64,000 nt of DNA from Streptomyces kaniharaensis (GTDB lineage: Bacteria > Actinomycetota > Actinomycetes > Streptomycetales > Streptomycetaceae), in the NCBI RefSeq assembly GCF_009569385.1, contig NZ_WBOF01000002.1:186001-250000 (forward strand). Reading direction: 5' to 3'. Each line of letters opens with the position of its first letter. Position 1 is the first letter of the stretch. This document shows, in pieces, positions 3,253 through 37,266 of this stretch. A program made the position numbers and the translations under genes. The notes beneath the pieces were generated by a model that was not told the DNA's origin, made no database searches, and was given only the letters and a program-made list of their open reading frames with translations.

Positions 3253-4350
3253 CTAGTGTCCTGCGCCAGGAATTCGTTCAAGATATGAGGCGAGTCGTTC
3301 GAGGATTTCGTCGGCGGTCCTGGTCCAGGTGAACGGGCGGGGGTTCTCGTTCCAGCTCTTGATCCAGGCCCTGATGTCCTTTTCCAGGGCATGGACGGAC
3401 TTGTGGACGCCGCGCCGCAGCTGCTTGTCCGTCAGCAGCGCGAACCACCGCTCCACCTGGTTGAGCCAGGACGAACTGGTCGGGGTGAAGTGCAGGTGGA
3501 ACCGGGGGTGTCCGGCCAGCCACTTCTGGATCGCGGGGGTCTTGTGGGTGGCGTAGTTGTCGCAGATCAGGTGCACGTCCAGGCCGGCGGGCACTTCCTT
3601 GTCGAGCTTGGCGAGGAACTTCTTGAATTCGGCCGCGCGGTGGCGGCGGTGGAGAGAGCCGATGACCTCGCCGCTGGCCACGTTCAGGGCGGCGAACAGG
3701 GTGGTGACACCGTTGCGCAGGTAGTCGTGGGTGCGGCGCTCGGGCATGCCCGGCATCATCGGCAGCACCGGGGCGGAGCGGTCGAGCGCCTGGATCTGGG
3801 ACTTCTCGTCGACGCACAGAACCAGGGCTCGCTCCGGCGGGTCCAGATAGAGCCCGACCACGTCGCGGACCTTGTCGATGAACTGCGGGTCCTTCGACAG
3901 CTTGAAGGTGTCGGCCAGGTGGGGCTTGAGGCCGAAGGCCCGCCAGACACGGCCGACCGTGGACTTCGACAACCCGGTCTCGGCGGCCATCGACGCCCGC
4001 GACCAGTGCGTGGCGTCCTTGGGGGTGCGCTCCAGGGTGGCGACGACGATTTCCTCGATCCGTTCGTCGCTGATCTTCCGTGGAGCGCCAGGGCGTTGCT
4101 CGTCCGCGAGCCCTTCCAGGCGGTGCTCCAGGAAGCGCCGCCGCCACTTGCCGACCGTCTGTGGCCAGATGCCGAGCTCTGCGGCGACCTGCTGGTTCGT
4201 CTTGCCGTCCGCACAGCCGAGCACGATCCGGCACCGCTGGGCCAGGGCCTGCGAGGACTTCGCCCGCCGCGACCAGCGGACCAGCGCCTCACGCTCGTCG
4301 TCGGTCAAGGTCAGCTCGGCCATCGGCCGCCCCATACGCGCCATGAACAC
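3253..4350 (-). CDS. IS630-family transposase
   Basis: A full-length DDE transposase of about 365 residues. The N terminus carries two helix-turn-helix units (QQVAAELGIWPQTVGKWRRR, then SKSTVGRVWRAFGL). The catalytic region shows VLCVDEKSQIQAL (first Asp), DVHLICDNYATHKTP (second Asp) and SSWLNQVERWFALLT (final Glu). The TAG stop lies in the left inverted repeat. The most likely start is the internal Met before AELTLTDDEREAL; upstream Met codons are also possible. The gene is intact, so the element may be active. Confidence 0.93.
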   Translation of the reverse strand: MFMARMGRPMAELTLTDDEREALVRWSRRAKSSQALAQRCRIVLGCADGKTNQQVAAELGIWPQTVGKWRRRFLEHRLEGLADEQRPGAPRKISDERIEEIVVATLERTPKDATHWSRASMAAETGLSKSTVGRVWRAFGLKPHLADTFKLSKDPQFIDKVRDVVGLYLDPPERALVLCVDEKSQIQALDRSAPVLPMMPGMPERRTHDYLRNGVTTLFAALNVASGEVIGSLHRRHRAAEFKKFLAKLDKEVPAGLDVHLICDNYATHKTPAIQKWLAGHPRFHLHFTPTSSSWLNQVERWFALLTDKQLRRGVHKSVHALEKDIRAWIKSWNENPRPFTWTRTADEILERLASYLERIPGAGH

Positions 4351-8390: not shown

Positions 8391-9341
8391 TCAGTGCTGC
8401 CAGTAGTCGAGGTCGGGCAGCCGGATCCAGGTGTCGGCAGGGCCGGTGACGGCGCGGGCGCTGGTGGGTCGGAGACCCGCGAAGGCGCAGGCGTAGGCGA
8501 CGGCGTGACGGCGGTAGAGATAGCTTGCCAGGACCTCCTCAGGGGTGTCGTCAGGGAGGGCGCCACCGCCGGGGTGGAGGTCCCAGCCTTCGACGGTGCC
8601 GTTGCGGACGATGCTGCCCTGGTTGCCACTCTTGGGGTTGGCGTAGAGGCCGTAGCCGACGGTACCGGTGGTCAGGCGGATCATCGCGCCCGGGATGGAC
8701 GGGGTGTAGCCCCAGGGCTGGGTGACGATGCATCCGCCGGGAACGGTCGTGACGCCGGCGATGAGCAGGCTCTCGTCCACGTCGTACTCGTACGGGTTGT
8801 CGAGGAAGTCTGCCATGAACTCCTCGTCCACAGGCGTCGCGTCCAGGCGGCGGATCGCCTCGGTGGCGTCGATGCCGGCGATGCAGGCGATGCCGGTGCC
8901 CTCGTAGTGGAAACGTCCCAGTGCCTCGACGAGTTGCCGGCCACTCTGGATGGTGGCCCGTTCGGCTGCCGTCAGGCCGGGTTCTTCGTCGGGGACGGGG
9001 AACAGGTCGGGGACTGGCCCGGCCAGGGCGAGGCGGCCCGGCGACCAGCCGCCAAGCTGGGGCCGCCAGGGATCGGCACCGGCGGCTACGAGGGCTCGGG
9101 CATTGTCCGGTTGGTCCTGCGTGACGGCCGCCCACAGCGCCGTCGTCCCGTACTCCAGCGCGTCCACGTCCGAGACACGGCCCGCCAGTTCGGCCACCAC
9201 CTCGGGAGAGCCAAACCCTGCCGCCCGGTGCAGCGGGCGCCCCCCGCTCCACACATCCGGGTCGGCGCCAGCCTCCAGCCGCGCGCGGATGTCGCCGTGG
9301 TCTCGCCAGCTGTCCCAGGTCACACCGGCCCAGCCCGTCAT
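8391..9341 (-). CDS. Ankyrin-repeat protein with DUF6461-like C-terminal domain
   Basis: A 316-residue protein. Residues about 10-105 form two to three ankyrin repeats (GRPLHRAAGFGSPEVVAELA, then EYGTTALWAAVTQDQPDNAR). The C-terminal 170 residues (from about IACIAGIDATEAIRRLDATP to the end) resemble the actinomycete DUF6461 pattern: an EAIRRLDA helix, a GGCIVTQPWGYTPSIPG strand pair and a late YRRHAVAYACAFAGLRP helix. The ATG at 9341 is preferred for its GGAGGGG site; an upstream start at 9401 lacks one. No signal peptide. The DUF assignment is from memory of the motif layout and is moderate. Confidence 0.65.
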   Translation of the reverse strand: MTGWAGVTWDSWRDHGDIRARLEAGADPDVWSGGRPLHRAAGFGSPEVVAELAGRVSDVDALEYGTTALWAAVTQDQPDNARALVAAGADPWRPQLGGWSPGRLALAGPVPDLFPVPDEEPGLTAAERATIQSGRQLVEALGRFHYEGTGIACIAGIDATEAIRRLDATPVDEEFMADFLDNPYEYDVDESLLIAGVTTVPGGCIVTQPWGYTPSIPGAMIRLTTGTVGYGLYANPKSGNQGSIVRNGTVEGWDLHPGGGALPDDTPEEVLASYLYRRHAVAYACAFAGLRPTSARAVTGPADTWIRLPDLDYWQH

Positions 9342-9671
9342 CGTGCCCCTCCGTCCCCTCCGCACCAGCGCGGGCGTCAGCCCCTCCGCACACGATCGCA
9401 TGCGGGTCCGACAGCCGTCGTTCCGGAGCCGATCCGGTCAGCCGCGTGCCTGCTGCGACGTCAGGAGCGCCGGACAGTCGCCGTGTGAGCCCTGACAATC
9501 CGCGCCGGCGGGGGCGTCGCCCCGACCGGCACGGGCGAGGAGGCATCCGGTCGGAGCTTCTGGGACGGCTTTCGGTACGGGATCTGGAATCCGGCGGAGG
9601 CGGACGTCTGAACGGGCTTGAGGAGCAGCACTGCAGCTGTTGGCGCGTTCTCGGTCCTGGGCGCGGCGGCT

Positions 9672-18678: not shown

Positions 18679-20350
18679 CCTCGCGCTTTCACGAGCAGCG
18701 CTGTCCGAGGCGTGATCAAAAGAACGAGGAGTGCCGCTGACCTGGGACGATTGGACTTGTCTAGGGTCATGATCGTCATCAAGAAAGCTGCACTCCTCAG
18801 GTGAAGAAGCGTAGCGGGTTGTATCCGAGTGTCCGCGTCGAGGGCGATGGTCGCGGGGTGGTCTCGCAGTCCGGCGCCGTGCTGCTGGTCGAGACCGCCC
18901 GCAAGGCGGGGCTGGACGCGGCGCTGTCGGCGGCGCTGACGCCGTGGCGCAAGCAGCGGGCGGTTCATGATCCCGGCAAGATCCTTCTGGACGTCGCGCT
19001 CGCCGTGGCCCTGGGCGGGGACTGCCTGGCCGATATCGCGATGCTGCGGGCCGAGCCCGCCCTGTTCGGCCCGGTGGCCTCCGACCCGACCGTCTCCCGC
19101 CTGGTCGACACCCTGGCCATGGCCGGACCGCGAGCGCTCGCGGCGATCCGCCGGGCCAGGGCCGAAGTCCGCGAGCAGGTCTGGCGGTTGGCCGGCAACG
19201 CTGCCCCGGACGCGGGCGGCGAGGTGATCGTGGACATCGACGGGGTCCTGGTCCTGGCGCACTCCGAGAAAGAGCACGCCGCCAAGACCTGGAAGAAGAC
19301 CTTCGGCCACCACCCGCTGTTCGCGTTCGTCGACCACGGCCGCGATGGTTCCGGGGAACCGGTCGCCGGCCTGCTGAGACCGGGCAACGCGGGCAGCAAC
19401 ACCGCCGCCGACCACATCGAAGCGGCCCGTCTGGCGCTGGCCCAGTTGCCGAGGAAGCACCGGCGCGGACGCCGAACGCTGATCCGGACGGACTCCGGCG
19501 GGGGCACCCACAAGTTCCTCAACTGGCTCACCACACGCGGCCGATGGCTGTCCTACTCGGTCGGGATGACTATCACCGATGCGATCCACCAGGCCGTGCT
19601 CCTGGTCCCGGCCTCGACCTGGACGGCGGCCGTCGAGCCGGACGGCGAGGTCCGTGACGGCGCCTGGGTCGCCGAGCTCGCCGGTGACGTGCTCAAGGGC
19701 TGGCCGAAGGGGATGCGGCTGATCGTCCGCAAGGAACGGCCGCACCCCGGAGCCCAGTTGCGCTTCACCGACGCCGACGGCATGCGGCTCACCTGCTTCG
19801 CCACCAACACCACCCACGCCCCGATCGCGCACCTGGAACTGCGGCACCGCCAGCGGGCCCGCGCCGAGGACCGCATCCGCGCCGCCCGTGACACCGGACT
19901 GCGCAACCTGCCCCTGCACGACGCCGCCCAGAACCAGGTCTGGCTGGAGATCGTCCAGATCGCGCTCGACCTACTGGCCTGGATGCCGATGCTCGCCCTG
20001 ACCGGGTCCGCTCGCCGGTGGGAGCCCAAGCGCCTGCGGCTGCGGCTGTTCTCCGCCGCCGCCCAGCTCGTCACCACCGGCCGCCGCTGGCACCTCCGCC
20101 TCGCCCGCCACTGGCCCTGGACCGACCTGATCACAGACGCCTTCGCACGCCTGCAAGCCCTGCCGAACCCCGGCTGACCAGCGACAACACCCCGTCCCGA
20201 CGAGCACCCGCCACTTTCCGGAGCCGTGGAACCCGGCGCCCACCCGACGCGACAGCCGGGCCCTCGCCATACCCGTCGGCAGAACACCCAGCCCAGCCAA
20301 GCAGAAACGGCCCGCCAGCCAGGCTGACGAGCCGTCATGCAAGATCGAGG
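18679..20350. mobile_element. IS1380-family insertion sequence, copy 1
   Basis: A 1,672-bp element with imperfect terminal repeats: CCTCGCGCTTTCACGA at the left and, read inward from the right, CCTCGATCTTGCATGA. It is flanked by CTAG on both sides, and IS1380 elements make 4-bp duplications. The left end is 5' of the transposase. Confidence 0.88.
18801..20177 (+). CDS. IS1380-family transposase
   Basis: A full-length 458-residue DDE transposase. Characteristic segments are KILLDVALAVALGGDCLADI, ASDPTVSRLVDTL, the catalytic EVIVDIDGVLVLAHSEKEHA, a long central FLNWLTTRGRWLSYSVGM region and the C-terminal VWLEIVQIALDLLAWMPML. The ATG at 18801 begins KKRSGLYPSVRVEG. It is very similar to the copy at 28320-29696; the differences are scattered substitutions, so neither copy looks decayed. 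Confidence 0.93.
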   Translation: MKKRSGLYPSVRVEGDGRGVVSQSGAVLLVETARKAGLDAALSAALTPWRKQRAVHDPGKILLDVALAVALGGDCLADIAMLRAEPALFGPVASDPTVSRLVDTLAMAGPRALAAIRRARAEVREQVWRLAGNAAPDAGGEVIVDIDGVLVLAHSEKEHAAKTWKKTFGHHPLFAFVDHGRDGSGEPVAGLLRPGNAGSNTAADHIEAARLALAQLPRKHRRGRRTLIRTDSGGGTHKFLNWLTTRGRWLSYSVGMTITDAIHQAVLLVPASTWTAAVEPDGEVRDGAWVAELAGDVLKGWPKGMRLIVRKERPHPGAQLRFTDADGMRLTCFATNTTHAPIAHLELRHRQRARAEDRIRAARDTGLRNLPLHDAAQNQVWLEIVQIALDLLAWMPMLALTGSARRWEPKRLRLRLFSAAAQLVTTGRRWHLRLARHWPWTDLITDAFARLQALPNPG

Positions 20351-21481
20351 CTAGTGTCCTGCGCCGGAGATCCGTCGGCAGAATCGGGCGAGGGAGTCGA
20401 GGATCTCGTCGGCGGTCTTGGTCCAGGTGAACGGTTTGGGGTCCTCGTTCCAGTTCTTGATCCAGGCGCGGATGTCCCTCTCAAGGGCCTGAACGTTCTT
20501 GTGGGCACCACGTCGGATCATCTGGTCGGTGAGAAAGCCGAACCACCGCTCCACCTGGTTGATCCACGAGGACCCGGTCGGGGTGAAGTGCATATGGAAT
20601 CGGGGATGTTGCGCCAGCCAGGCACGGATGGCCGGGGTCTTGTGGGTGCCGTAATTGTCGCAGATCAGGTGGATGTCGAGCCCGTCGGGAACCTCGCGGT
20701 CGATCTTGACGAGGAACTTCTTGAACTCCGCCGCACGGTGCCGGCGGTGCAGTGAAGTGATGACCTTCCCGCTGCTGGTGTCGAACGCGGCGAACAGGGT
20801 GGTCAGACCGTTGCGCACGTAGTCGTGGGTTCGACGCTCCGGCATGCCCGGCATCATGGGCAGGACCGGCTGGGAGCGGTCGAGGGCCTGGATCTGCGAC
20901 TTCTCGTCGACCGACAGCACCACCGCACCTTCGGGCGGGTCGAAGTACAGGCCGATCACGTCGTGGACCTTCTCGATGAAGAGCGGGTCGGTGGACAGCT
21001 TGAAGGTGCCGACCAGGTGGGGCTTGAGCTGGAACTTCCGCCAGATCCGTCCGACGGTCGACTTCGAGAGGCCGCTGCGGGCGGCCATCGAGCTCCGGGA
21101 CCAGTGTGTCGCGTTCTTCGGGATCTCCTCCAGCGTCGCCACGACGACCGCCTCGATCTCGTCGACCGCGATCGTGGGCGGCCGGCCCGGTCGGGGTTCG
21201 TCTACCAGGCCGTCCAGCCTCTCGGCGAGGAACCGGCGTCGCCACTTGCGGACCGTGTCCGCAGTGATGCCCAACTCCCTTGCCACGCCGACGATCGACG
21301 GCACATCAGGACCGTCGCAGGCCAGCACGATCCGGGCCCGCAGAGCCAACGCCTGGGCGGACGAGGCTCTGCGGGCCCACCGCGTCAGCGTGGCCCGTTC
21401 CTCGTCGGACAGCAACAACGGTTCCAAGGCGGGACCACGACGGCGCACCGGGAGATCAGGAGAAGAAGAGCTCACACACAA
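20351..21481 (-). CDS. IS630-family transposase
   Basis: A 376-residue transposase with the same plan as the gene at 3253-4350: HTH units (GVARELGITADTVRKWRRRF and SKSTVGRIWRKFQLKP), first Asp in VVLSVDEKSQIQAL, second in DIHLICDNYGTHKTP, Glu in SSWINQVERWFGFLT. Its N terminus is longer than in copy 1, so an internal Met or other start near LEPLLLSDEERATL is possible. The TAG stop is formed where the inverted repeat meets the CTAG target duplicate. Intact. Confidence 0.92.
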   Translation of the reverse strand: MCVSSSSPDLPVRRRGPALEPLLLSDEERATLTRWARRASSAQALALRARIVLACDGPDVPSIVGVARELGITADTVRKWRRRFLAERLDGLVDEPRPGRPPTIAVDEIEAVVVATLEEIPKNATHWSRSSMAARSGLSKSTVGRIWRKFQLKPHLVGTFKLSTDPLFIEKVHDVIGLYFDPPEGAVVLSVDEKSQIQALDRSQPVLPMMPGMPERRTHDYVRNGLTTLFAAFDTSSGKVITSLHRRHRAAEFKKFLVKIDREVPDGLDIHLICDNYGTHKTPAIRAWLAQHPRFHMHFTPTGSSWINQVERWFGFLTDQMIRRGAHKNVQALERDIRAWIKNWNEDPKPFTWTKTADEILDSLARFCRRISGAGH

Positions 21482-22058: not shown

Positions 22059-23900
22059 TTATGGCCTTTTTCCTCCTGCTTGGGGGCTCCTGTCGGGATA
22101 TGTGTAGGTTTCTGGTCGGTCTTTGTCATCGAACGAGATATCTGCGCCGAGAGGACGCACGTCGACCCACGCCTGGCGACCGTCGAAGGCCAGCAGCCGT
22201 TTCTGGTCTCGTCCGCCTGGGTGATCAGGCCCCCCAAACTCGGGCTGTGGCGCCACCTCCGATGCTATGTAGGTGATGCTGGCCCCTTCATCGAAGGTGA
22301 TCGACACCCGGGCGTTCTTCGCGTCTGAGGAGTAGTAGTCTATGGGCCGCTTGCCGTCGGTGCCATAAAAGTCCCGCCTCAAGGCGAATCCCTCTACGGC
22401 ATCGATCGCCTGAAGGGCATCGATGATGTCAGTCATCTCAACTCTCGAAAGCTGTTGACCTCCACTCGTCTGCAGAATGTTGTCGCGCGCCCCAATGAGG
22501 CTGTCGTCTGCCATCTCAGCTGAGGAGCCGAACCACCGAAGACTACGGGGGTACTTTTCCTTGTATTCGTCTGCCCGGACGTGGACCTCAGACCGCTTAA
22601 GGAGGCCGTCGAGGTACCCTTGGGCGTCTTCCTTGATGGCGTCGCTCACTGGAAGCCCGGCGATCGCCTTCTCGATGTCCTCGGCCCCCTGCATGTTGCC
22701 CTGCTCCCGGAGGATGTCCTGCTCCTGGCGAGCCGCAACAATGATTTCCGCCATGCTCCGGTCCTCGGCCGACTCCCAGTTGAAGTTGGAGTAGCTATCC
22801 CAGCGTTCGTTGGCTTCGGCGGGCCGATGGACCACCTCGACCGGGAACTGCATTCCTACAAGGTCGTTGTCGTTGAGCTGTTCCCGGATGACATCGGGAA
22901 AATCCTCCGGCCCGTTCACCGTCAAGGTCCACGGCGCGTCGGCTCGTGCGTCAGGTTGAATCGGCAGCCGGTCGTCGATGTCGGTGGGCGGCGTGTCAAC
23001 GGGGTCGGAGACCGCCTTGTCCAGGCTGTCGAGGTACGCCTGGGCGTCTTCCTTGATGGCGTCGCTCACTGGAAGCCCGGCGATCGCCTTCTCGATGTCC
23101 TCGGCCCCGTCCGTGTTGCCCTGCTTCCGGAGGATGTCCTGCTCCTGGCGAGCGGCGACGTCGTCCATCTGGTAGGTCGATGAGTCGTATTTCCATGGGA
23201 AGTTTGGCGCCCCTGTCATGTTCTCCCATGGTCGGATTACGTTGGGAAAATTCTCGATGGCGCCCAACTCCATTTCGTAGGGAGCCTCCGGCCAGTCCCT
23301 GCGTCGTGTCGGCTCAGGGTAATGTTCGCGCGGCTCGGCAGGCCCAGTGTCGATGATGAGCCGCCCCTCGTCCTTCATCTGGTTGATCCAGGCGTGGTTG
23401 TGCTCAAGCTGAGCGGCTTTGAGTTCTGCGCTACCCTCCGGCAGCCCGGCTTGCTCAGCAGTCAGCCCTGGATAGGTTTCGGCGCCGAACCGCTTCGCGG
23501 CGTATTCGACCCTGTCTTGCTGCTCGCCGATCACAACGGGGGCGCGTTCGACGGGCTTGATGTCTTGAATCGGACGATCGTTCCGGTCGGTGGCGGGCGT
23601 CCCTTCGTCACGATGCGGGCCGGCGTCTGGCCTTCCGGGGGACCTGTCACTGCCCGACAGCGGGGCGTCAGCGGTGGGTACGTCGGCTGTGGTCGGGGCA
23701 GTACGAGCGGCGTCACCGGAGGCCTGGCCCTTTGGGGCGCGTTGGACGGGCTTGATGTCTTGAATCGGACGATCGTTCCGGTCGGTGGCGGGCGTCCCTT
23801 CGTCACGATGCGGGCCCGCGTCTGGCCTTCCAGGGGACCTGTCACTGCCCGACAGCGGGGCGTCTGGCCGACGGGGGCCGATCGTGCCATCTGCGCCCAT
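22059..23900 (-). CDS. Repeat-containing hypothetical protein of the ATPase operon
   Basis: A 613-residue acidic protein of unknown function. Residues about 12-120 are low-complexity and hold two copies of a 43-residue unit (APLSGSDRSPGRPDAGPHRD and onward), 65 residues apart. Residues about 248-288 and 388-428 are two copies of a helical unit (VAARQEQDILRKQGN, then GAEDIEKAIAGLPVSDAIKE), 140 residues apart. The C-terminal 130 residues contain KNARVSITFDEGASITYIAS. No signal peptide or membrane helix. ATG at 23900 with a GAAGGA site at the end of the ATPase gene, whose stop is 3 bp away, so the genes are tightly coupled. It may be an effector or substrate of the ATPase (inference). Confidence 0.7.
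   Translation of the reverse strand: MGADGTIGPRRPDAPLSGSDRSPGRPDAGPHRDEGTPATDRNDRPIQDIKPVQRAPKGQASGDAARTAPTTADVPTADAPLSGSDRSPGRPDAGPHRDEGTPATDRNDRPIQDIKPVERAPVVIGEQQDRVEYAAKRFGAETYPGLTAEQAGLPEGSAELKAAQLEHNHAWINQMKDEGRLIIDTGPAEPREHYPEPTRRRDWPEAPYEMELGAIENFPNVIRPWENMTGAPNFPWKYDSSTYQMDDVAARQEQDILRKQGNTDGAEDIEKAIAGLPVSDAIKEDAQAYLDSLDKAVSDPVDTPPTDIDDRLPIQPDARADAPWTLTVNGPEDFPDVIREQLNDNDLVGMQFPVEVVHRPAEANERWDSYSNFNWESAEDRSMAEIIVAARQEQDILREQGNMQGAEDIEKAIAGLPVSDAIKEDAQGYLDGLLKRSEVHVRADEYKEKYPRSLRWFGSSAEMADDSLIGARDNILQTSGGQQLSRVEMTDIIDALQAIDAVEGFALRRDFYGTDGKRPIDYYSSDAKNARVSITFDEGASITYIASEVAPQPEFGGPDHPGGRDQKRLLAFDGRQAWVDVRPLGADISFDDKDRPETYTYPDRSPQAGGKRP
22621..23157. repeat. Internal DNA duplication, 117-bp units 420 bp apart
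   Basis: 22621-22737 and 23041-23157 are nearly identical and keep the reading frame of the 613-residue protein. They encode its helical EDIEKAIAGLP unit. The near-identity at the DNA level points to a recent or conversion-maintained duplication. Confidence 0.8.
23541..23864. repeat. Internal DNA duplication, 129-bp units 195 bp apart
   Basis: 23541-23669 and 23736-23864 differ at only a few positions and are in frame (65 codons apart). They encode the Pro/Asp/Arg-rich N-terminal unit of the 613-residue protein. Confidence 0.8.
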
Positions 23901-23903
23901 GGT

Positions 23904-26900
23904 TCATCCTTCCGTCGATGAGACGTCCTCCTGCGGGCAAAGCCGAGATACGAGCCACTCGGGCGGCTGCATCTCGAGTCGCTTCAGAGCGGTGAAGACG
24001 GCGGTACGGTCTCGTGCCTCGGCTGAGCCAGCCAGTGCCCGGATCGCGCCCGTTAGTGGCGTCTCCGGTCCTGCGCCCCAGTACAGCGTCTGCTGGCCGG
24101 CATAGGTGGCCCAGCGGTGATTGCGGAGCACCTCCAGCGCCTGCGCTGCAGTGCTTCTATCGCCAAGCCTGGAAGCGCCGCGACGACGGCCTTCCTGGGC
24201 CAGCCAATTCGGGATCACAGCTCCGGGTTCCATGCTGCCCAACTCTTCGAGTAGGTCGATGAATCGGCGCTGCCCTGCCTGGAATTCCGGCTCCGAGCGG
24301 TCACACTGACGGGTCGCCGGCCAACATGGAGCCTCAGCACGGCATCGGTCCACTGCCCCAATGGCAGCCGAGCTCAGGTGTTCGCCGAGCAGGCCGGGGT
24401 CATAGAACTCGGCCAGCGGACCGTACCTTGCGTCGATGCTGCCGTGCACGACTGAGGCGACAGTGCACTGCACGGTGCGGGGGTCGAGAGCGCGGAGCTG
24501 CTCGAACATGGTGCCGGTCAGTACGGGCAGCTTGTAGCCGCCGCCGATCAGGTGGGTGATGAGCTCGGCCTCCAACCATAGGGTCAGCTCCGGCAGGGCC
24601 GCGGCCAGCTCCTCCGCCGTGCTGATCTGGCGGAGCGTGCAGGCCTCTGCAGAGGAGGCGGAGCACATCGAGCCGCACTCCCTGTGGCGCGACGTGGCTC
24701 GCGGCGGCACGAATGCCGGGGTGCCGCCCTCATGTACCTCACCATTGCGCGCGTGCACCAGACAGGGGCGGTCCATCCCATCGGCATGCACGACCGCCAT
24801 GCCGGGACGCAGCGTTACGACGTATTCAGAGCCGGCATCGTCCAAGTTCATGGTGGCCCCGACGAAGTCGCGGTCGTCGGTGGCGGGCAGCCGGTGCATC
24901 ACCTTCACCGCGCTGTTCTTCACCACGTCGGAAATAATCTTGGAGGGGATCTGCTCTACGACCGCGATGCCCTCGCCGTAAGCACGAATTTCTGCCAGCA
25001 AATCAGCGAAGAGCGACACGGCCTGTGCCGCCGGGCTCCCCGGTGGCATGTTCTTGAGCAATCGGTGAGCCTCCTCGATCACCGTCAGGTGCATGAGGCT
25101 GGTGGCCTTCGCGCGGTGCACCCGCAGGTGCTCGACCAGGCGAATGAGGACGATGCCTATGAGGAATGCCTTGTCGGCATCAGAGCCGAGGCCTTCCAAC
25201 TCGATGACGACGTTCTGCTCAAGCAGGGCGCCGATATCGAGCGGATGGCCTCCTTCGAAGAACCGCCCCGGGCTGCCTAGACGCAGGCTCCCTATTCGTA
25301 CGTCGATGAACCCGCGGACGTTGTCGGCTACCTCCCGGCCGTATCCGATGTCGTCGACGACCTGGCGGGCGGCCGCTTGCAGGTCGGAGAGGCTTGGCCA
25401 GGCCGGAGGGTGTTGCGGGCTGTGCATGCGCCAAGACTGTGCGGGCTCGCCGGTTCCGAGATTCCAGCGACGGTCCTGGTAGCAGCGCACCAACGCCCGG
25501 CTGAGTACCTGCGGGAATGGCTCGTCCGCCTCGAAGGCGGCCATGAACAGGGCCTGGACCAGGTCGATGTGCGTCTGCAGCCCAAAACCGGGTTCGGGCT
25601 CGAGGGGGTTAAGCCCGCCGGGGATGAGGTCTGGATCTCCTGGCCGAAGAACGACGACATCCTGGTCTGCTGGCAACCGGGCTGCCAGTCCGGCGTATTC
25701 GGCCTTCGCTGGCTCTATGACCAGCCACGGTACGCGCTTCTCGGCGGTGCTCAGGGCTTCGAGCAGGATGCGGATCGTCTGCGACTTGCCGGAGCCGGTC
25801 GCCCCACACACAAATGCGTGCCGGTTCAAGCTTGACAGAGGTATCGACCACTGGCCGCACGGCAGGAGGTTGGCGTCGAGCAGTTCGCCGATCTGGACAG
25901 GACCCGCAGTCTCGGCGGTGAGGTCAAAGCGAGGCGCTTTCACAACGCGCACGCCAGGCACCTCACGCACGGGCGGCCGCGTGAGCGAGGCCAGCAGGTA
26001 CGCAGATCCCCACCCCTCCGGTCCGTCTGGGGCGCCGGCGAGGCCTGGACGGTCTACACCCTGGTTTCCGTCGGGGATGTCTGGACTCGCGGCAAACGTC
26101 TCATACAGTTGTACCGGTGCCAGGGTGTACATGCTTTGACGCAGCTCCGGCGCACCGGTGAGTGCGGCGGCGGCTTGATGGGCCACCGACTCGTCGCAGG
26201 CTCCCACGTACACGTCGACTTGCCACCAGCCATTCGGCCGCCAAGTGGAGATCTCGCGGAACCACGCCTCGGCGCGCTCCAGGGCCAGCTTGTGGCTCTC
26301 CGCGGACCCGGCCCTGTTGCGAAGGCCGGGCATCAGGTGCGCCAGGCGAGTCAGCTCGCGGCCCGCCGCCGCATCCGGCACCGGGTGGGCGTGGATCAAC
26401 CATGCGAGCGGCTGAGCGGCAAGGAGTTCGAAGCAATCCTCGACACTGCCGCGCATGGCACCGCGCAGGCCCGCCACCGTTGACTCCCCCGCAAGCTCGG
26501 TACTGAGCGGGTCGAAGACCGGCGTATAACGGAGCCACTGCCATCGTGCGGTATCCGGCTCCGGAGCAATGTAGTCACCAGCAGCGTCCTTGCGATCTGC
26601 CGGCCCATCGAGCAGGGCAGCCCACGCGGGACCGTCGGCTGGTCTCGCCAACGCTGTGGCCGGGGCGGCCAGCCGCCGCAGACCAGACTCTTCCTGGGCT
26701 GGCCCGAGGTCGAAGCCACCGTTCAAGATGACGACCGGGCCGTGAGCGCGGCTCCGGACCCAGACCGACACCACTGGCTGGCCGAGTACGTTCGCTGCAA
26801 GCAGCGCTGGGGTAATCGACAGGGCCGCAGCACGCTGAGGCAGCTCAGTCACCGCGTTGCCATACTGAGGAACCTCCGCGACCGACTCGAGCTGCCACAG

Positions 26901-26978
26901 TGGGGCGCTCCGGGCGAGGGCAAGTAGTCCCGCAACGTCGTGTCCAGGTTCCCCGGTTGGCCTGGTCTTCGTTCTCAT
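23904..26978 (-). CDS. HerA/FtsK-like P-loop ATPase
   Basis: A 1,024-residue ATPase of the HerA (DUF87-type) group, motors that pump or remodel DNA as hexamers. From the ATG at 26978: Walker A GATGSGKSQT at about residues 392-401, a strand WLVIEPAKAEYAGL after it, Walker B HLTVIEEAHRLL at about 630-641, and a sensor-like GIAVVEQIPSKI at about 671-682. The first 380 residues are a large unknown domain, and about 760-1024 is an unknown C-terminal domain with several Cys (MCSASSAEAC, CRAEAPCWPATRQC). The ATG overlaps the upstream stop as ATGA. An alternative upstream start at 27017 would overlap the neighbour by 43 bp. Confidence 0.85.
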   Translation of the reverse strand: MRTKTRPTGEPGHDVAGLLALARSAPLWQLESVAEVPQYGNAVTELPQRAAALSITPALLAANVLGQPVVSVWVRSRAHGPVVILNGGFDLGPAQEESGLRRLAAPATALARPADGPAWAALLDGPADRKDAAGDYIAPEPDTARWQWLRYTPVFDPLSTELAGESTVAGLRGAMRGSVEDCFELLAAQPLAWLIHAHPVPDAAAGRELTRLAHLMPGLRNRAGSAESHKLALERAEAWFREISTWRPNGWWQVDVYVGACDESVAHQAAAALTGAPELRQSMYTLAPVQLYETFAASPDIPDGNQGVDRPGLAGAPDGPEGWGSAYLLASLTRPPVREVPGVRVVKAPRFDLTAETAGPVQIGELLDANLLPCGQWSIPLSSLNRHAFVCGATGSGKSQTIRILLEALSTAEKRVPWLVIEPAKAEYAGLAARLPADQDVVVLRPGDPDLIPGGLNPLEPEPGFGLQTHIDLVQALFMAAFEADEPFPQVLSRALVRCYQDRRWNLGTGEPAQSWRMHSPQHPPAWPSLSDLQAAARQVVDDIGYGREVADNVRGFIDVRIGSLRLGSPGRFFEGGHPLDIGALLEQNVVIELEGLGSDADKAFLIGIVLIRLVEHLRVHRAKATSLMHLTVIEEAHRLLKNMPPGSPAAQAVSLFADLLAEIRAYGEGIAVVEQIPSKIISDVVKNSAVKVMHRLPATDDRDFVGATMNLDDAGSEYVVTLRPGMAVVHADGMDRPCLVHARNGEVHEGGTPAFVPPRATSRHRECGSMCSASSAEACTLRQISTAEELAAALPELTLWLEAELITHLIGGGYKLPVLTGTMFEQLRALDPRTVQCTVASVVHGSIDARYGPLAEFYDPGLLGEHLSSAAIGAVDRCRAEAPCWPATRQCDRSEPEFQAGQRRFIDLLEELGSMEPGAVIPNWLAQEGRRRGASRLGDRSTAAQALEVLRNHRWATYAGQQTLYWGAGPETPLTGAIRALAGSAEARDRTAVFTALKRLEMQPPEWLVSRLCPQEDVSSTEG

Positions 26979-27619
26979 CTCAGCCACCGCCAGCTGCCGA
27001 GCATCGTCCACAGGCATGGCAAGTAGCGCTCGTGGTCAATAGAGTCGGCGCGGAACTCCATCCGGAACCCCTGCCCGCGCCGGGCGAAGTATGCCTCGGT
27101 CATGCTCACCGGGACGATGGGGACGGACGGTTGCCCCCTGTTGGCGCCATCGTCGTCGAGCCCATAGTGGAGGAACAGCCCCAGCTCACCATCGATGAGA
27201 ATCTTCCCTGGCGATCCCAGCGGATGCCCATTAGGCACGTTCGAGAACCTGCGCCGGTGAAACTCATCCATATTCATCATGAGTTCCGCCAGACCTGGAC
27301 CTTCTAGCTGGAACGGGCTGACCAGCATTCCCGTCCAGGCATCGTCCGCTCGGTCGGCTGCGACGCCGGCCACCACAGGCAGCCCCATCTGCATGACCGC
27401 ATAGTCAACCTCCTGGCGGGACAGATCTCGCCAGCCCCATGGCACACCCAGCTGGAAGAAGTAGCCGTCCGTGATGACCCGGTCGATATCCAGCAAAGGC
27501 TCGGCGACAGCAGCACCGGCAGGACTCATTGCCGCCCTCAGTCGCGCCCTGTCGGCAGCACTGACTACTGCCTTGCGAATGCCGAGTCCAGCGAGGTAAC
27601 CGGCCGTCTGCCAGGCCAT
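26975..27619 (-). CDS. Hypothetical protein, first gene of the ATPase operon
   Basis: A 214-residue protein of no family I recognise. Features are an Ala-rich N terminus, DIDRVITDGYFFQLGVPWGW in the middle, and a Trp/Arg-rich C terminus (CLWTMLGSWRWLR). No membrane helix or signal peptide. ATG at 27619 with a GGGGGAGG site. Its stop overlaps the ATPase start by 4 bp (ATGA), so the two proteins are likely made in fixed ratio and may act together. The 133-bp gap to the divergent gene at 27753 should hold both promoters. Confidence 0.7.
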   Translation of the reverse strand: MAWQTAGYLAGLGIRKAVVSAADRARLRAAMSPAGAAVAEPLLDIDRVITDGYFFQLGVPWGWRDLSRQEVDYAVMQMGLPVVAGVAADRADDAWTGMLVSPFQLEGPGLAELMMNMDEFHRRRFSNVPNGHPLGSPGKILIDGELGLFLHYGLDDDGANRGQPSVPIVPVSMTEAYFARRGQGFRMEFRADSIDHERYLPCLWTMLGSWRWLR

Positions 27620-27682: not shown

Positions 27683-28154
27683 TTTTCGTGCCTGTCCACC
27701 CACGCGTGAAGCGGTGCGCGCGCTGCAGGGGGGCTGAACGGAGGTTCACGCGGTGACTGCCGGGCCTGACGTCCCCCCATCGCCAGTGGAGATCTTGTTC
27801 GCACACACCGAACGCTGGGGCTGGGAGTTCCGGCGACCCCAGCCGGCGAGGCGCTCGCTTGAGCGAAACAGGCCGCCCGCAGCCCAGCACGGTGAGAATA
27901 TTGCCGTGACGTGGCGGAAATGGAGAAAGCGAATCCTGGAGTTCGAAGCGGAGGACGCGCACCGATATCTGAACGCCCCATTGTGGTTCTCCATTCGGCC
28001 AGAGCAGCCCTGGTCCGTGGTACCGGTCTTCGGCGGAACCCATATCGGCTGGGAGGCGCTCCTGCTGACCCTGGGGACTTCCATGCTCGCCAGTGGCAAC
28101 AACCTGACTATCGCCAACCTCAGCGAATGGCATGTCACCGCGAGCCTTGCCGAG

Positions 28155-28158
28155 TTAG
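28155..28158. other. 4-bp target duplication of IS1380 copy 2
   Basis: TTAG directly left of the element; the second copy is at 29819-29822 directly right of it. Confidence 0.85.
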
Positions 28159-29818
28159 CCTCGATCTTTCGTGACGGTCCGTCGGTTCATCCGGCGGGCC
28201 GTTTCGGCTTTCTGGCGGTGGCGAGGATGCCTGTGGCCCGGCTGTCGCGTCGGGTGGGCGCCGGGTTCCACGTCTCCGGGGAGGGTCAGTTGCTGGCTGG
28301 GATAGGGCATCGACGCTGGTCAGCCCGGGTTCGGCAGGGCTTGTAGCCGTTCGAAGGCGCTGGTGATCACATCGGTCCAGGGCCAGTGTCGAGCGAGGCG
28401 GAGCACGCGGCGGCGGCTGGTGGTGACGAGTTGGGCGGCGGCGGAGAACAGCCGTAGCCGCAGGCGTTTGGGTTCCCACCGGCGGGCGGGCCCAGTGAGG
28501 GCGAGCATGGGCATCCAGGCGAGCAGGTCGAGCGCGAGCTGGATGATCTCGAGCCAGACCTGGTTCTGCGCGGCCGCTTGGAGGGGGAGGTTGCGCAGGC
28601 CGGTGTCGCGGGCGGCGCGGATGCGGTCCTCGGCGCGGGCGCGCTGGCGGTGCCGCAGCTCCAGGTGGGCGATCGGGACGTGGGCGGTGTTGGTGGCGAA
28701 GCAGGTCAGCCGCATTCCGTCGGCGTCGGTGAAGCGCAACTGGGCTCCGGGGTGCGGCCGTTCCTTGCGGACGATCAGCCGCATGCCCTTCGGCCAGCCA
28801 GTGAGGACGTCCCCGGCGAGTTCGGCCACCCAGGCGCCGTCCCGGATCTCGCCGTCCGGCCCGATCGCGGGCGTCCAGGCCGAGGCCGGCACGAGCAGGA
28901 CGGTCTGGTGGATGGCGTCGGTGATGGTCATCCCCACCGAGTAGGAAAGCCACCTTCCGCGTGCAGTGATCCAGTTGAGGAACTTGTGGGTGCCGCCGCC
29001 GGAGTCGGCGCGGATCAGGGTGTGGCGTCCACGCCGGTACTTCTTCGGCAGCTGGCCCAGGGCCATTCGGGCGGCCTCGATGTGGTCGGCGGCGGTGTTG
29101 CTGCCCGCGTTCCCGCGCCTGAGCAGGCCGGCGACAGGTTCCCCGGACCCGTCTCGGCCGTGGTCGACGAACGCGAACAGCGGGTGATGGCCGAACGTCT
29201 TCTTCCAGGTCTTGGCGGCGTGCTCCTTCTCGGAATGCGCCATGACCAGCACGCCGTCGATGTCCACGATCACCTCGCCGCCCGCGTCCGGGGCCGCCTC
29301 GCGGGCCAACCGCCAGACCCGCTCGCGGACTTCGGCCCGAGCACGGCGGATTGCCGTCAGTGCCTTGGGTCCAGCCGCCGCCAGGGTGTCGACCAGGCGG
29401 GAAACAGTCGGATCCGATGCCACCGGCCCGAACACGGCGGGCTCGGCCCGCAGCATCGCGACGTCCGCCAGGCAGTCCCCGCCCAATGCCACTGTCAGCG
29501 CGAGATCCAACAGGATCTTGCCGGGGTCATGAACCGCCCTGGGCTTGCGCCACGGCGCGAGCGCCGCAGACAGCGCATCAGCCAGCCCTGTTCTTCGGGT
29601 CGTTTCCACCAGCAGCACCCCGCCGGCCTGCGAGACAATCCCGCCACCGCCACCCGACACCCGCACACGCGGATACGACCCGATACGCTTACTCACCTGG
29701 GAAGTGCCTCCGGCTGGTGCGGGAACAAGGGCCTAGACAATCCTTATTCTCGCAGGTCAGAGGCCCTTTCTGCTTTGCTGATCACCTGCCGGACAGCCCA
29801 CTTCGTGAAAGCGCGAGG
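28159..29818. mobile_element. IS1380-family insertion sequence, copy 2
   Basis: A 1,660-bp element, inverted relative to copy 1. The ends are CCTCGATCTTTCGTGA (left) and CCTCGCGCTTTCACGA (right, read inward), flanked by TTAG on both sides. It interrupts the HerA-like gene after codon 135. Confidence 0.92.
28320..29696 (-). CDS. IS1380-family transposase
   Basis: A 458-residue transposase, intact and very similar to the one at 18801-20177: same KILLDLALTVALGGDCLADV, EVIVDIDGVLVMAHSEKEHA and LALDLLAWMPMLALTGPARR segments, with a few conservative changes. Both copies begin K-R-x-G-x-Y-P and end QALPNPG. The start at 29696 matches the other copy. Confidence 0.93.
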   Translation of the reverse strand: MSKRIGSYPRVRVSGGGGGIVSQAGGVLLVETTRRTGLADALSAALAPWRKPRAVHDPGKILLDLALTVALGGDCLADVAMLRAEPAVFGPVASDPTVSRLVDTLAAAGPKALTAIRRARAEVRERVWRLAREAAPDAGGEVIVDIDGVLVMAHSEKEHAAKTWKKTFGHHPLFAFVDHGRDGSGEPVAGLLRRGNAGSNTAADHIEAARMALGQLPKKYRRGRHTLIRADSGGGTHKFLNWITARGRWLSYSVGMTITDAIHQTVLLVPASAWTPAIGPDGEIRDGAWVAELAGDVLTGWPKGMRLIVRKERPHPGAQLRFTDADGMRLTCFATNTAHVPIAHLELRHRQRARAEDRIRAARDTGLRNLPLQAAAQNQVWLEIIQLALDLLAWMPMLALTGPARRWEPKRLRLRLFSAAAQLVTTSRRRVLRLARHWPWTDVITSAFERLQALPNPG

Positions 29819-31019
29819 TTAGTCAGCGCCTGGGGAGTCTCCGTCGAGCGGGCCACGATTTCCGCCAGGGAATCCTCGCTCGATCTGTTCGAGGGCCTCA
29901 GCTCCGAGGAGCTCATCTCGCTAGTGCTCGATGCCCTTGCAACAGAGGACCCAAGTGCCCATCGCAGGGAGCACATGGAAGACCGCGCAACGCTCCGTAG
30001 TATCGCAATGCAACTGGAGCCCCACGTGAGCTTGGGCCGACTGCGTTCGGCGTTGCGCATCCTTCTGCGCGAGGCGCCTCTCACAGAGGAGGACGCTCAG
30101 CTATCCGCAGACGAGTTCGACGCGCTCACCGAGATGTTCGGCCAGGAGATCCGCACCGGCACGGATCTGCTGGGCCGTTCCTATCAGCTGGAACATGCCC
30201 TGCAAGAGCTCTCGTTCTTCGCCCGCCTCCCCGGACCCACCGGCGGTGCTGGTGGGGCACCGACCCCAGCGGCGAAGACGGCCGGTCAGGTCCCGCACCT
30301 CCTCCTCTTTGACGTCGCGCACGACATGAATGTGTATGAGCACGACCTCGGAGCGGACCTGCTGGTGCAGCGGCTGCTCCGGCAGCTCACAGACAACGGC
30401 GGGAGTAGTGGTGCCGGCGACGTGCTGGTCGTCGCCGGCGCCGACCGGCTCTACCAGCGCACACTCGACAGGCTGCTCGCTCTTGCCGAGACGCGCCGCC
30501 TGCGGGTCTTGCTGATGTTCAACCGCCTGGGTGATCACGCGCTTGGTGCGCTCGGCGCCAGCAACATCTGCGTCTTCATGCGACTATCCGACTACCGGGA
30601 GGCCACTCACGCGGCTGAACAGGTTGGCCGCAGCCACAAGTTTGTCCTCAGCGAGATAACTAAGACGCGCGGCGTCGCCTACGACCAAGGTACCAGCCGC
30701 GGCTCTGGCCGCGAGCAAGGACGCAGCACGTCCTCTACCTTCGGCGGGCAGTTCTCCGTCAGCCATTCGGCGAATGTCGGGGTGAGTCAAAGCCAGGGCA
30801 GCAGCGCGTCGCGAAACGTTTCAACCAGCGACAGTGAGAGCTCCGAACGGGTGTATGAGTTTGACCTGGAGCCACGTGAGGTCCAGGCGCTGCCAGCGAC
30901 GGCCATGTTCCTTGTTGAACAGGCTCGCGGTACCTCACGCCTAATCGACTGCGACCCGCTGATCGCCTTGCAGGCAAAGCTCGGCTGAGCCGATGAGAAA
31001 GATCGATGATAAAACGAAA

Positions 31020-31071: not shown

Positions 31072-31147
31072 GGTCACAGGCCTCAGGTTCAAAGCTGGTC
31101 GCGCGAGCGGCTGACCTAGTGTTCCAGGACTCCGAGTGGGGGCAGAA

Positions 31148-31801
31148 ATGACCGACCAAGATGATCACTCAGGCCAGTACGACCAGCCGCCCGGTGCGTC
31201 CGGCCCGGGGCAGTACGGCCAGCCGCCCGGTGCGTCCGGCCCGGGGCAGTACGGCCAGCCGCCCGGTGCGTCCGGCCCGGGGCAGTACGGCCAGCCGCCC
31301 GGTGCGTCCGGCCCGGGGCAGTACGGCCAGCCGCCCGGTGCGTCCGGCCCGGGGCAGTACGGCCAGCCGCCCGGGTCCACGGGCACCGCGGCGCCGTACC
31401 CAGGCATCAAATCACCTGCCATCCCATATACCGACTGGTTCCACCGCGCCGGAGGGTACCTCCTCGACATTGTTCCCGTGCTCATCATCGTCTTCATCGG
31501 AGCCATCACCCGTACCTCTTTCGTCATCGTGCTCGCTTACCTTGTGGCGCTGGCCTTTTGGTTTTACAACCGCTGCATCCTGGGTGGGCAAGGCCAGAGT
31601 TTTGGCAAAAGAGTGATGGGCATCAAGCTCGTCTCGGAGGAGACCGGCCGGCCGATCGGCACCCTGATGACTTTCGCCCGTGACCTGTGCCACATCCTAG
31701 ATTCGCTCGCCTGCTACATCGGCTGGCTCTTTCCGCTGTGGGACGCCAAGCGGCAGACGTTTGCTGACAAGATCGTTCGGACAGTGGTAGTTCCTGTGTG
31801 A
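31148..31801 (+). CDS. RDD-family membrane protein with PGQYGQ repeats
   Basis: A 217-residue protein. Residues about 14-75 are a soluble Pro/Gly/Gln repeat of 12 residues (PPGASGPGQYGQ) in five identical copies. An RDD domain follows: YTDWFHRAGGYLLDIVPVLI (first helix with the Arg/Asp motif), TSFVIVLAYLVALAFWFYN (second helix), GQGQSFGKRVMGIKLVSEE, and a final helix CHILDSLACYIGWLFPLWD. RDD proteins are small membrane proteins of mostly unknown role; some act as transporters. The ATG at 31148 is preferred over an upstream frame start for its GGGGGC site. Confidence 0.82.
   Translation: MTDQDDHSGQYDQPPGASGPGQYGQPPGASGPGQYGQPPGASGPGQYGQPPGASGPGQYGQPPGASGPGQYGQPPGSTGTAAPYPGIKSPAIPYTDWFHRAGGYLLDIVPVLIIVFIGAITRTSFVIVLAYLVALAFWFYNRCILGGQGQSFGKRVMGIKLVSEETGRPIGTLMTFARDLCHILDSLACYIGWLFPLWDAKRQTFADKIVRTVVVPV
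31187..31366 (+). repeat. Five perfect 36-bp tandem repeats in the RDD gene
   Basis: The 36-bp unit beginning CCGCCCGGTGCGTCCGGCCC occurs five times without a mismatch (31187, 31223, 31259, 31295, 31331), then degenerates at 31367. Being a multiple of three, it could change copy number by slippage without breaking the frame. Confidence 0.95.
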
Positions 31802-35601: not shown

Positions 35602-37266
35602 CTACTTGCTGATCTTGGCGGGCTCGTCGGAGGTCAGGGTGTGGCCTGCGATGGAGGCGAGTTGGTCGGCTGTGGTCACGGTGATCGCTCCGCGGGGGAT
35701 GGGGTGGCCGAGGGCGTCGAGGATCCGGTTCGCTTCGTGGACTGCTTCGGTGATCCGCGCCTGTGAGGTGCCGAGCAGGGCTGCGAGCGGCGGGTTGTGG
35801 ATCTTCCAGCGCGCCTTGAGGACGCCGACCAGCAGGCGGTCGGCGGCGGACAGGTAGCGACTGCCGGTGCCCGGCCCCGTCTTCTTCCCCGGGATCATGA
35901 TCGGTGGGTAGTCAGCGAGGTAGCGGCGGTAGCGCTCCTGGAGGTCCTGCCAGTCGGGTTGCTCCATGCCGGTCAGGCTGGGGTGGTGTAGCCAGGCGGG
36001 TGCCTTGTCGCCGACGGGAAAGCGGCCGAACTCTGCTGAGACAGCTGGAGGTTCGGGAGCGAGCGGCTCGGGGCGGAGAGTGTAGTTCCAGGTGCCGTGC
36101 CACGCGTGGGTGTCCAGCGGAAGTCGGTCCATGACATGGTCGGGGACGGTGACGCCGGTGGGGTAGCTGCCTGGGTCGAGTTCGGCGTGGACCGTGAGTC
36201 CGGTGCGGGTGGTCGTCGCGCCGATGCAGCCGACGACGACTTCGTGGCTGGTCAGCGGGCGTCCGCGCCAGTTGGTGCTGATCTGCGAGAACAGCCGGTG
36301 CTCTATCTTGTTCCACTTCGAAGTGCCCGGCGGAAAGTGACAGACAGTCACGGTCAGGCCGGTGGCGAAGGCGAAGTCGGCGAGTTCCTTCTTCCAGGCC
36401 CGCACCCGGTAGCCGTTCGCCCCGCCCGCGTCGGCGGTGATCAGCAGTCGCGTCGCGTCCGGGTAACGGTGCCGGCCCTCGGCCTCCCACCAGCGGCGCA
36501 GGGTGGCCACCGCGAACGCGGCGGTGTCCCAGTCGCAGCCCACCGACACCCAGCCGGCGTCCGCGGCAAGGTCGTAGATCCCGTACGGCACCGCCTTCTG
36601 CGCGTCCTTCTCGGGGAAGTCGTGCGCGCGCACGCGCACCGGCTCTCCGGCGCGGTGCCATTCGCGCCCGCCGACCGCGTAGTCGCCGAGCACCTCCTTC
36701 TTCTTGGTGTCCACGCTGATGACCGGCTGCCCGGCCGCGGTGAACTCCTTGACCCGCGCGTTGATGTAGCCGAACTGGACGTCGCGGTCCGGATGCCTGG
36801 CGCCCTCGGTCGTTCGCGAGGTGCCCTGCAAGGAGAAGCCCTCGGCCTTCAGCAGCGCGGCGACCGTATCCGACCCGATCCGGTGGCCCTCGCGGGTCAG
36901 CTCGGCCGCCAGATTCCGGGTGGACTTCACCGTCCAGCGCAACGGCGACTCCGGATCCCCACGCTGGTCCGGCTCGACCAGTGCCAGCAGCGCCGCCACC
37001 AGGCCGGGATCACTCTCACGCAGCAGTTTCCGCCCGCCCCCTTCGGCCCGGACCCGGCCAGCGGGCTCCAGGTCCGACCCCAGCTCCCGGGCGCCGCGCG
37101 CCACGGTGGACTCCGCCGCCCCCGCAAGGCGGGCAACCCGGCGCACGCCCCCGTATCCCAGCACCCTGGCCGCGGCCCCAAGCGTCAGGCGCCGCTGCCG
37201 CTCATCCAGCTGCGGCAACAGCCGGGCGAGCACCTCCCCGAGCACCGTTGCCATCTCATCCGTCAC
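35602..37266 (-). CDS. ISAzo13-family transposase
   Basis: A 554-residue transposase. N-terminal HTH-like region (VLGYGGVRRVARLAGAAEST), then the family's catalytic core: QPVISVDTKKKEVLGDYA, ATRLLITADAGGANGYRVRA, CHFPPGTSKWNKIEHRLFSQ and NWRGRPLTSHEVVV. About 130 residues follow the core (with SRYLSAADRLLVGVLKARWK). GTG start at 37266. I could not define terminal repeats; the AT-rich segments near 35595 and 37300 are only roughly inverted. The frame is intact. Confidence 0.88.
   Translation of the reverse strand: MTDEMATVLGEVLARLLPQLDERQRRLTLGAAARVLGYGGVRRVARLAGAAESTVARGARELGSDLEPAGRVRAEGGGRKLLRESDPGLVAALLALVEPDQRGDPESPLRWTVKSTRNLAAELTREGHRIGSDTVAALLKAEGFSLQGTSRTTEGARHPDRDVQFGYINARVKEFTAAGQPVISVDTKKKEVLGDYAVGGREWHRAGEPVRVRAHDFPEKDAQKAVPYGIYDLAADAGWVSVGCDWDTAAFAVATLRRWWEAEGRHRYPDATRLLITADAGGANGYRVRAWKKELADFAFATGLTVTVCHFPPGTSKWNKIEHRLFSQISTNWRGRPLTSHEVVVGCIGATTTRTGLTVHAELDPGSYPTGVTVPDHVMDRLPLDTHAWHGTWNYTLRPEPLAPEPPAVSAEFGRFPVGDKAPAWLHHPSLTGMEQPDWQDLQERYRRYLADYPPIMIPGKKTGPGTGSRYLSAADRLLVGVLKARWKIHNPPLAALLGTSQARITEAVHEANRILDALGHPIPRGAITVTTADQLASIAGHTLTSDEPAKISK

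What the first reader, a model, noticed from the sequence alone, without database searches (positions are those of the whole stretch)
27753..30988. Gene split by IS1380, exactly restorable
27753-28158 and 29823-30988 join in one frame of 524 codons when the IS (28159-29818) and one TTAG copy are removed. The junction reads ASLAEL-VSAWGVSVERA. The disruption is recent and clean, so the module was probably functional until this insertion.
Basis: seen in the sequence. Interest (0 to 1): 0.6.

Follow-up and report, generated by a model that had tools for sequence, protein, structure and literature searches.

The report
Toxin-delivery gene split by insertion sequence
A mobile DNA element has recently cut in two a gene whose intact relatives in soil bacteria look like catalytically dead, membrane-anchored conjugation motors sitting beside a live motor and often beside a changing toxin gene, which points to a little-described toxin-delivery machine.

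Summary
A 1660-bp IS1380 element (28159-29818) with 4-bp target duplications splits one gene; the flanks share a 524-codon frame and homologues cross the junction. Five further copies in the genome differ by 0-1 bases, so the insertion is recent. The gene, here called fam0, has no Pfam family. An intact homologue is predicted to fold like a type IV coupling protein (TrwB, Z 22.3), but the Walker A lysine is missing in 56 of 56 homologues: a pseudo-ATPase. Beside it lies an intact VirB4/HerA-like ATPase (23904-27017). Among the best 80 named actinobacterial loci found through that ATPase, 72 have fam0. The gene after the ATPase tends to encode an acidic or Pro-rich start without signal peptide; up to 17 of 59 scanned carry a recognised, changing toxin domain (calpain, deaminase, ADP-ribosyltransferase, RelA/SpoT, nuclease). 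I read this as a compact polymorphic-toxin delivery module with fam0 as coupling part; export is inferred, not shown. 'Functional until the insertion' is plausible but unproven: the window copy lacks the transmembrane segment seen in 71 of 72 homologues. One published sentence (S. albireticuli, 2025) hints at such a locus.

The parts
27753..28158 (+). N-terminal part of the split gene (fam0): 135 codons plus the first base of the shared codon; holds the degenerate P-loop GGTHIGWE at about 28032-28055
28155..28158 (.). left copy of the 4-bp target duplication TTAG
28159..29818 (.). IS1380-family insertion sequence, 1660 bp; five further near-identical copies in the genome
28320..29696 (-). IS1380 transposase, 458 aa
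29819..29822 (.). right copy of the target duplication TTAG
29823..30988 (+). C-terminal part of the split gene (fam0): degenerate Walker-B region, FMRL motif, Ser/Gly-rich loop
23904..27017 (-). partner ATPase, 1037 aa, VirB4/HerA-like, Walker motifs intact; divergent from the split gene
22059..23900 (-). candidate effector, 613 aa, in the toxin position 3 bp after the ATPase; repetitive N-terminus without hydrophobic signal, orphan C-terminus
   Evidence: position and make-up only; no domain hit
26975..27619 (-). 214-aa orphan gene overlapping the ATPase start; possible accessory of a subtype without transmembrane segment (weak resemblance to a gene of L086)
31136..31801 (+). RDD-domain membrane protein downstream of the split gene; membership in the module uncertain (no relative in the other loci)

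Best explanation
The split gene encoded the coupling-protein-like pseudo-ATPase of a two-motor delivery module for polymorphic toxins in actinobacteria. Shown by computation: fam0 has the predicted fold of VirD4/TrwB/VirB4/HerA motors without the Walker A lysine; it is linked to, and co-diverges with, a live VirB4/HerA-like ATPase; the gene after that ATPase carries different C-terminal toxin domains in different loci, and in the few cases examined is followed by a partner gene that looks like immunity. Inferred: fam0, held in the membrane by its N-terminal segment, recruits the toxin through the toxin's acidic or Pro-rich N-terminus and passes it to or through the ATPase, which spends the ATP. 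The IS1380 insertion falls between the P-loop-like part and the rest of the core, so neither fragment should form it, and the module here is very probably inactive. No second copy was found in the genome.
For: Predicted fold of intact fam0 (L035; 57-row alignment; pLDDT 84.5): TrwB 1e9s Z 22.3 over 350 residues at 4.2 A, VirB4 4ag5 Z 21.9, HerA 4d2i Z 18.7; Foldseek best hits TrwB, E 5e-9. Walker A position: K in 0 of 56 homologues (W 51, R 3, C 1, S 1); the Walker B acids of the ATPase face G-A in fam0, aligned by eye. The ATPase keeps its Walker residues in 43 of 43 rows, window included. fam0 in 72 of the 80 loci kept from at least 300 found through the ATPase alone, and in 0 of 10 loci of more distant ATPases (10 of 11 such matches fetched). 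In the family samples the 10 genomes with a close ATPase (339 bits or more) are the 10 with strong fam0 hits. Mantel r 0.85 between the two proteins over 56 loci, 0 of 999 permutations as high. Downstream proteins: 17 family-member matches to toxin-type Pfam families among 59 scanned, 58 of 59 without an N-terminal hydrophobic stretch; none of these families among the 25 of 100 families displayed for 54 control genes of the same loci. Cassette exchange: a RelA/SpoT domain 89-90% identical, with an HD_4 gene 94-96% identical, in modules of different arrangement (L023 versus L032, L035). S. clavuligerus megaplasmid: fam0, ATPase, ADP-ribosyltransferase and small ORF in one tight row. No second copy.
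Against: Export is not shown. At least 42 of the 59 downstream proteins have no toxin-family match at E 0.001. No VirB3/6/8-type gene was recognised among the 28 largest neighbour clusters listed (judged from the first 70 residues of representatives, no profile search); the largest cluster beyond the pair is an M48 membrane peptidase in 11 of 90 loci. HerA-family motors also serve intracellular anti-phage systems, and PADLOC defence models (mad8, HerA) match the ATPase at E down to 1e-13. Two or more hydrophobic segments were seen in only 42 of 72 homologues (41 plus L083). The window copy has none, its effector has no recognised domain, and no immunity gene was identified there. 8 of 80 loci lack an intact fam0, 3 of them (L060, L068, L090) with the ATPase near a contig start. 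HD_4 genes also occur without a RelA/SpoT hit (L019, L059, L113). Two genomes with weak fam0 hits (G147, G265) have no close ATPase.
Confidence: 0.65

Rival explanations
1. Intracellular anti-invader system: the HerA-like pair captures foreign DNA at the membrane and the variable domain is a suicide or nuclease effector.
For: Motor domain close to DndH, SIR2-HerA and DUF4297-HerA structures; HerA/FtsK capture systems are described (PMC12839542, passages); PADLOC mad8 and HerA models match at E 1e-13 (that library has no cutoffs).
Against: Downstream proteins include calpain-type proteases, an RHS-repeat protein, CdiA C-terminal domains and a glutamine deamidase, which I know as typical of exported polymorphic toxins; the score against the NCBIfam anti-phage HerA models is 28 and 16 against cutoffs of 800 and 850; fam0 has a transmembrane-type segment in 71 of 72 homologues.
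Confidence: 0.2
2. A reduced type IV secretion or DNA-conjugation apparatus with other T4SS parts elsewhere in the genome, the toxin being a passenger.
For: VirD4/TrwB and VirB4/TrwK folds; Ahmad et al. 2025 name such neighbours TrwB, TrwK and TrwI.
Against: No relaxase or VirB3/6/8-type gene recognised among the recurring neighbours (no T4SS profile search was made).
Confidence: 0.12
3. The window module was already decaying before the insertion; the IS landed in a dead gene. (This can hold together with any of the functional readings.)
For: Missing transmembrane segment in the window copy; IS-rich surroundings; fam0 also degraded in L032 and L046.
Against: No stop or frameshift in either half, in the ATPase or in the effector; one other locus (L086) also has fam0 without the segment, so this may be a subtype.
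Confidence: 0.3

Closest known systems
Type IV coupling proteins (VirD4/TrwB)
   Same: predicted fold over the RecA-like core with a helical insertion; N-terminal transmembrane-type segment in 71 of 72 homologues
   Different: Walker A lysine lost and Walker B acids apparently replaced; Ser/Gly-rich loop; segment missing in the window copy; about 12% identity
VirB4/HerA ATPases (partner gene)
   Same: DUF87 domain above the Pfam cutoff, intact Walker motifs, motor fold Z 28-33
   Different: extra C-terminal helical region; its neighbour is a dead member of the same superfamily; below every curated NCBIfam cutoff it matches
[quoted passage not shown] 2012, PMC3482391, passages read)
   Same: constant genomic position, exchangeable C-terminal toxin domains, adjacent immunity-like genes
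   Different: no WXG/LXG, PAAR, MuF or PrsW family among the 17 Pfam families found in 59 effectors and no Sec-like start by hydropathy in 58 of 59; N-terminus acidic or Pro-rich
Exported alarmone synthetase of Streptomyces albireticuli (Ahmad et al. 2025, PMC12691689)
   Same: RelA/SpoT enzyme without signal peptide beside genes called TrwB, TrwK, TrwI; probably this module (inference)
   Different: one sentence suggesting a T4SS; the pseudo-ATPase, the other toxin types and the breadth are not in the section read; its supplementary figure was not seen
IS1380 family
   Same: DDE_Tnp_1_4 transposase, terminal repeats, 4-bp target duplication
   Different: nothing notable

Membership tests
IS1380 | IS1380-type DDE transposase | tested here: met
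   NF033539, 341 bits against cutoff 180
IS1380 | terminal inverted repeats and short target duplication | tested here: met
   six copies, each with a 4-bp YTAR duplication
Type IV coupling protein | RecA-like core with helical insertion | tested here: met
   predicted model of homologue L035, TrwB Z 22.3
Type IV coupling protein | Walker A lysine / active ATPase | tested here: not met
   K in 0 of 56 homologues; the window reads GGTHIGWE
Type IV coupling protein | N-terminal transmembrane hairpin | tested here: inconclusive
   at least one hydrophobic segment in 71 of 72 homologues, two or more in 42 of 72, none in the window copy
VirB4/HerA ATPase (partner) | HerA/DUF87 motor with intact Walker motifs | tested here: met
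   PF01935 30.8 bits against 23.2; motifs invariant in 43 of 43
VirB4/HerA ATPase (partner) | VirB4-type N-terminal domain | tested here: inconclusive
   565 residues align to TrwK but at 16 A rmsd
Type IV secretion system | VirB3/6/8-type channel genes | tested here: inconclusive
   none recognised among the listed neighbour clusters of 90 loci; no profile search made
Polymorphic toxin system | constant position, exchangeable C-terminal toxin domains | tested here: met
   not for the window effector itself
Polymorphic toxin system | immunity gene next to toxin | tested here: inconclusive
   HD_4 beside RelA/SpoT in 3 of 3 loci with that toxin domain; a related small ORF after the ART in the 2 loci compared; none identified in the window
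Type VII secretion | WXG/LXG effector domain | tested here: not met
   absent from the 17 Pfam families found in 59 effectors at E 0.001
Anti-phage HerA systems | curated anti-phage HerA models | tested here: not met
   28.3 bits against cutoff 800 and 16.2 against 850; PADLOC HerA models match at E 1e-13 without a cutoff
Any secretion system | effector leaves the cell | not testable with these tools
   needs an experiment

The most novel reading that the evidence does not exclude
A minimal, so far unnamed actinobacterial export machine in which two HerA/FtsK-superfamily proteins, one live and one catalytically dead and membrane-anchored, move polymorphic toxins without the rest of a type IV secretion system.
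Probability: 0.35. Interest if true: 0.85.

Novelty: new variant of a known kind. Interest (0 to 1): 0.55.

Why it matters
How Streptomyces and other actinobacteria deliver toxins that lack Sec and type VII signals is poorly known. A widespread pair made of a dead coupling-protein fold and a live motor, tied to exchangeable toxins, gives a concrete, deletable candidate. The IS insertion itself is ordinary, but it marks a natural loss of the coupling component.

Tried and rejected
Chance open frame: insufficient alone (136 of 3000), replaced by homology. NF033849 serine-rich match to fam0: weak (22 of 57 members, best 2e-6) and possibly compositional; a lead only. Rfam, promoter and tRNA scans were not run. 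The 214-aa gene: best PDB match E 0.5, no plasmid match, in 394 genomes of the class only two weak matches besides itself; its resemblance to an L086 gene is E 0.022, a lead only. Candidate effector, 214-aa gene and RDD gene: no hit in the 99 other loci at E 0.001. Effector C-terminus: no relative in 296 other genomes or in plasmids. Plasmids: 39 records match the ATPase at E 1e-30, 18 match the C-half, 17 of these Streptomyces. Phages: two records match the ATPase at 27-31% identity over about 36% of it. The hydrophobic-segment count was first 70 of 72; L083 had been misplaced and has two segments, hence 71 of 72. L026 and L027, fetched for weak fam0 hits, showed neither gene. Left out before the effector count: 14 of the 73 downstream ORFs, judged by eye (four membrane proteins L063, L068, L087, L088; two fam0 genes L078, L097; six likely frame artefacts or truncated ORFs L048, L073, L079, L081, L095, L100; two from plant-pathogenic Streptomyces, L070, L080). 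7 of 80 loci gave no downstream ORF of 120 aa or more. Of the Pfam hits I did not count as toxin: HD_4, HD, DUF6531, SNase, AAA_33, AAA_17, Trypan_PARP. Disorder of the effector N-termini was not computed. The alignments called A4 and A6 are only containers for scanning. Fold lists do not exclude folds that are not listed.

Full report
The observation. The IS1380 element lies at 28159-29818 with TTAG on both sides. The same 1660-bp unit occurs six times in the genome; the other five copies differ from the window copy by 0-1 bases and each has its own 4-bp YTAR duplication. The two flanks form 135 codons, one shared codon and 388 codons. Because an open frame of this length arises in 136 of 3000 random draws here, I relied on homologues. 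A search with the C-terminal half found relatives in 3 of 70 genomes of the genus and 12 of 394 of the family, own genome included in each, mostly at about 30% identity. Searched separately in 99 loci, both halves hit 58; in 57 the best hits are in order and in frame, in 24 with exactly the expected spacing. An HMM made without window sequence finds the core in one open frame across the junction position in 72 of 80 named loci (71 over nearly the whole model, L073 up to its contig end) and finds the window as two pieces, model positions 6-58 and 50-313. I never joined the flanks.

What the gene is. No Pfam family matches either half. The alignment of homologues shows a hydrophobic N-terminal region, a GGTxxGW loop, a VAGADxL strand, an FMRLGNxxEA motif and a Ser/Gly-rich loop. 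The model of an intact homologue has pLDDT 84.5 and matches TrwB (Z 22.3, 350 aligned, 4.2 A), VirB4 (21.9), DndH (21.3) and HerA (18.7). At the Walker A lysine position there is no lysine in 56 homologues; the Walker B acids appear replaced, aligned by eye. So it is a dead member of the VirD4/VirB4/HerA superfamily. The insertion falls between the P-loop-like part and the rest of the core.

The partner. The divergent gene at 23904-27017 is a HerA/DUF87 ATPase with invariant Walker residues and a model (pLDDT 84.4) close to DndH (Z 33.1), VirB4 (32.0) and HerA (28.2); residues 20-768 also align to TrwK/VirB4, at high rmsd. In the family samples (394 and 388 genomes, not quite the same sets) the ten genomes with a close ATPase (339 bits or more) are the ten with strong split-gene hits; two further genomes have weak split-gene hits only. 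Of eleven more distant ATPase matches I fetched ten; none has fam0 nearby. Of these 80, 45 have fam0 upstream on the same strand, 16 upstream on the opposite strand as in the window, 11 downstream, 8 none. The two proteins diverge together (Mantel r 0.85 over 56 loci). Some of these loci are close relatives, so they are not all independent.

The cargo. Of 80 loci, 73 have an ORF of 120 aa or more starting at the end of the ATPase gene. After 14 were left out (listed under Tried and rejected), 59 were scanned: calpain protease 4, YwqJ deaminase 3, zeta toxin 2, CdiA tRNase 2, and one each of RHS, ADP-ribosyltransferase, DNA/RNA endonuclease, glutamine deamidase, CdiA_C and RelA/SpoT: 17 family-member matches, so at least 42 of 59 have no recognised toxin domain. 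58 of 59 have no N-terminal hydrophobic stretch and 34 of 59 have at least 12% proline in the first 120 residues. Four further Streptomycetaceae loci carry calpain (L022 by Pfam; L024 by its likeness to L022), RelA/SpoT (L023) and ADP-ribosyltransferase (L025) in the same position. Genes about 4.5 kb away in 54 of the 59 loci are ordinary in the 25 of 100 families displayed. The RelA/SpoT cassette with its HD_4 gene is shared at about 89-96% identity between modules of different arrangement; HD_4 genes also occur without that toxin in three loci. In S. clavuligerus the order is hypothetical protein (fam0), ATP-binding protein, ADP-ribosyltransferase, hypothetical protein, tightly packed. In the window the cargo position holds a 613-aa repetitive protein without known domain.

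State of the window module. ATPase and effector are open; fam0 is cut. fam0 here lacks the hydrophobic segment that 71 of 72 homologues have; one relative, L086, lacks it too, so this may be a subtype. fam0 is also degraded in L032 and L046, whose ATPases still cover the model. The module has lower GC (63-67%) than the window (69.7%), which suggests acquisition.

Against the export reading. No channel protein was recognised among recurring neighbours (no profile search), the motor also resembles anti-phage HerA proteins, and nothing here shows a protein leaving a cell.

Literature. In the listings of searches, and in what I opened of six papers, I saw no description of this pair beyond the sentence below. 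Passages only were read of PMC3482391, PMC7159879, PMC12419801, PMC12857230 and PMC12839542. Of PMC12691689 I read abstract, outline, passages and section 9: it states that a Streptomyces albireticuli alarmone synthetase without signal peptide co-occurs with TrwB, TrwK and TrwI, suggesting a type IV secretion system. This is probably the same module; its supplement was not seen.

Host. A contig of G344 has the same length as a Streptomyces cirratus contig, so the family is Streptomycetaceae; the window's genus is another one, perhaps Kitasatospora (inference).

Noticed in passing
window 18679-20350: A second IS1380-type element (83% identical) with CTAG duplications; its right duplication supplies the stop codon of an IS630-type transposase ORF (20351-21481), a nested insertion.
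   Followed up: partly
L032 about 9295-9630; L046 about 9165-9509: Two Streptomyces loci keep an ATPase that covers the whole model but only fragments of fam0, so loss of this component recurs.
   Followed up: partly
L108-L117: A more distant group of HerA-like ATPases (166-370 bits) without fam0 nearby; L113 has an HD_4-like stretch.
   Followed up: partly
window 22059-23900: The candidate effector has internal repeats, including a 36-residue unit at 83% identity.
   Followed up: no
L086 7939-8439 and window 26975-27619: Small genes beside fam0 copies without transmembrane segment share an F..G.PW.W start and an MLGS..W end (by eye; E 0.022); possibly a third component of a subtype.
   Followed up: partly
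L051 7539-9542 and 14607-16562: One locus carries two fam0 copies.
   Followed up: no
window 35602-37266 and 3253-4350: ISAzo13-type and IS630-like transposases, further signs that this part of the genome is rich in insertion sequences.
   Followed up: no
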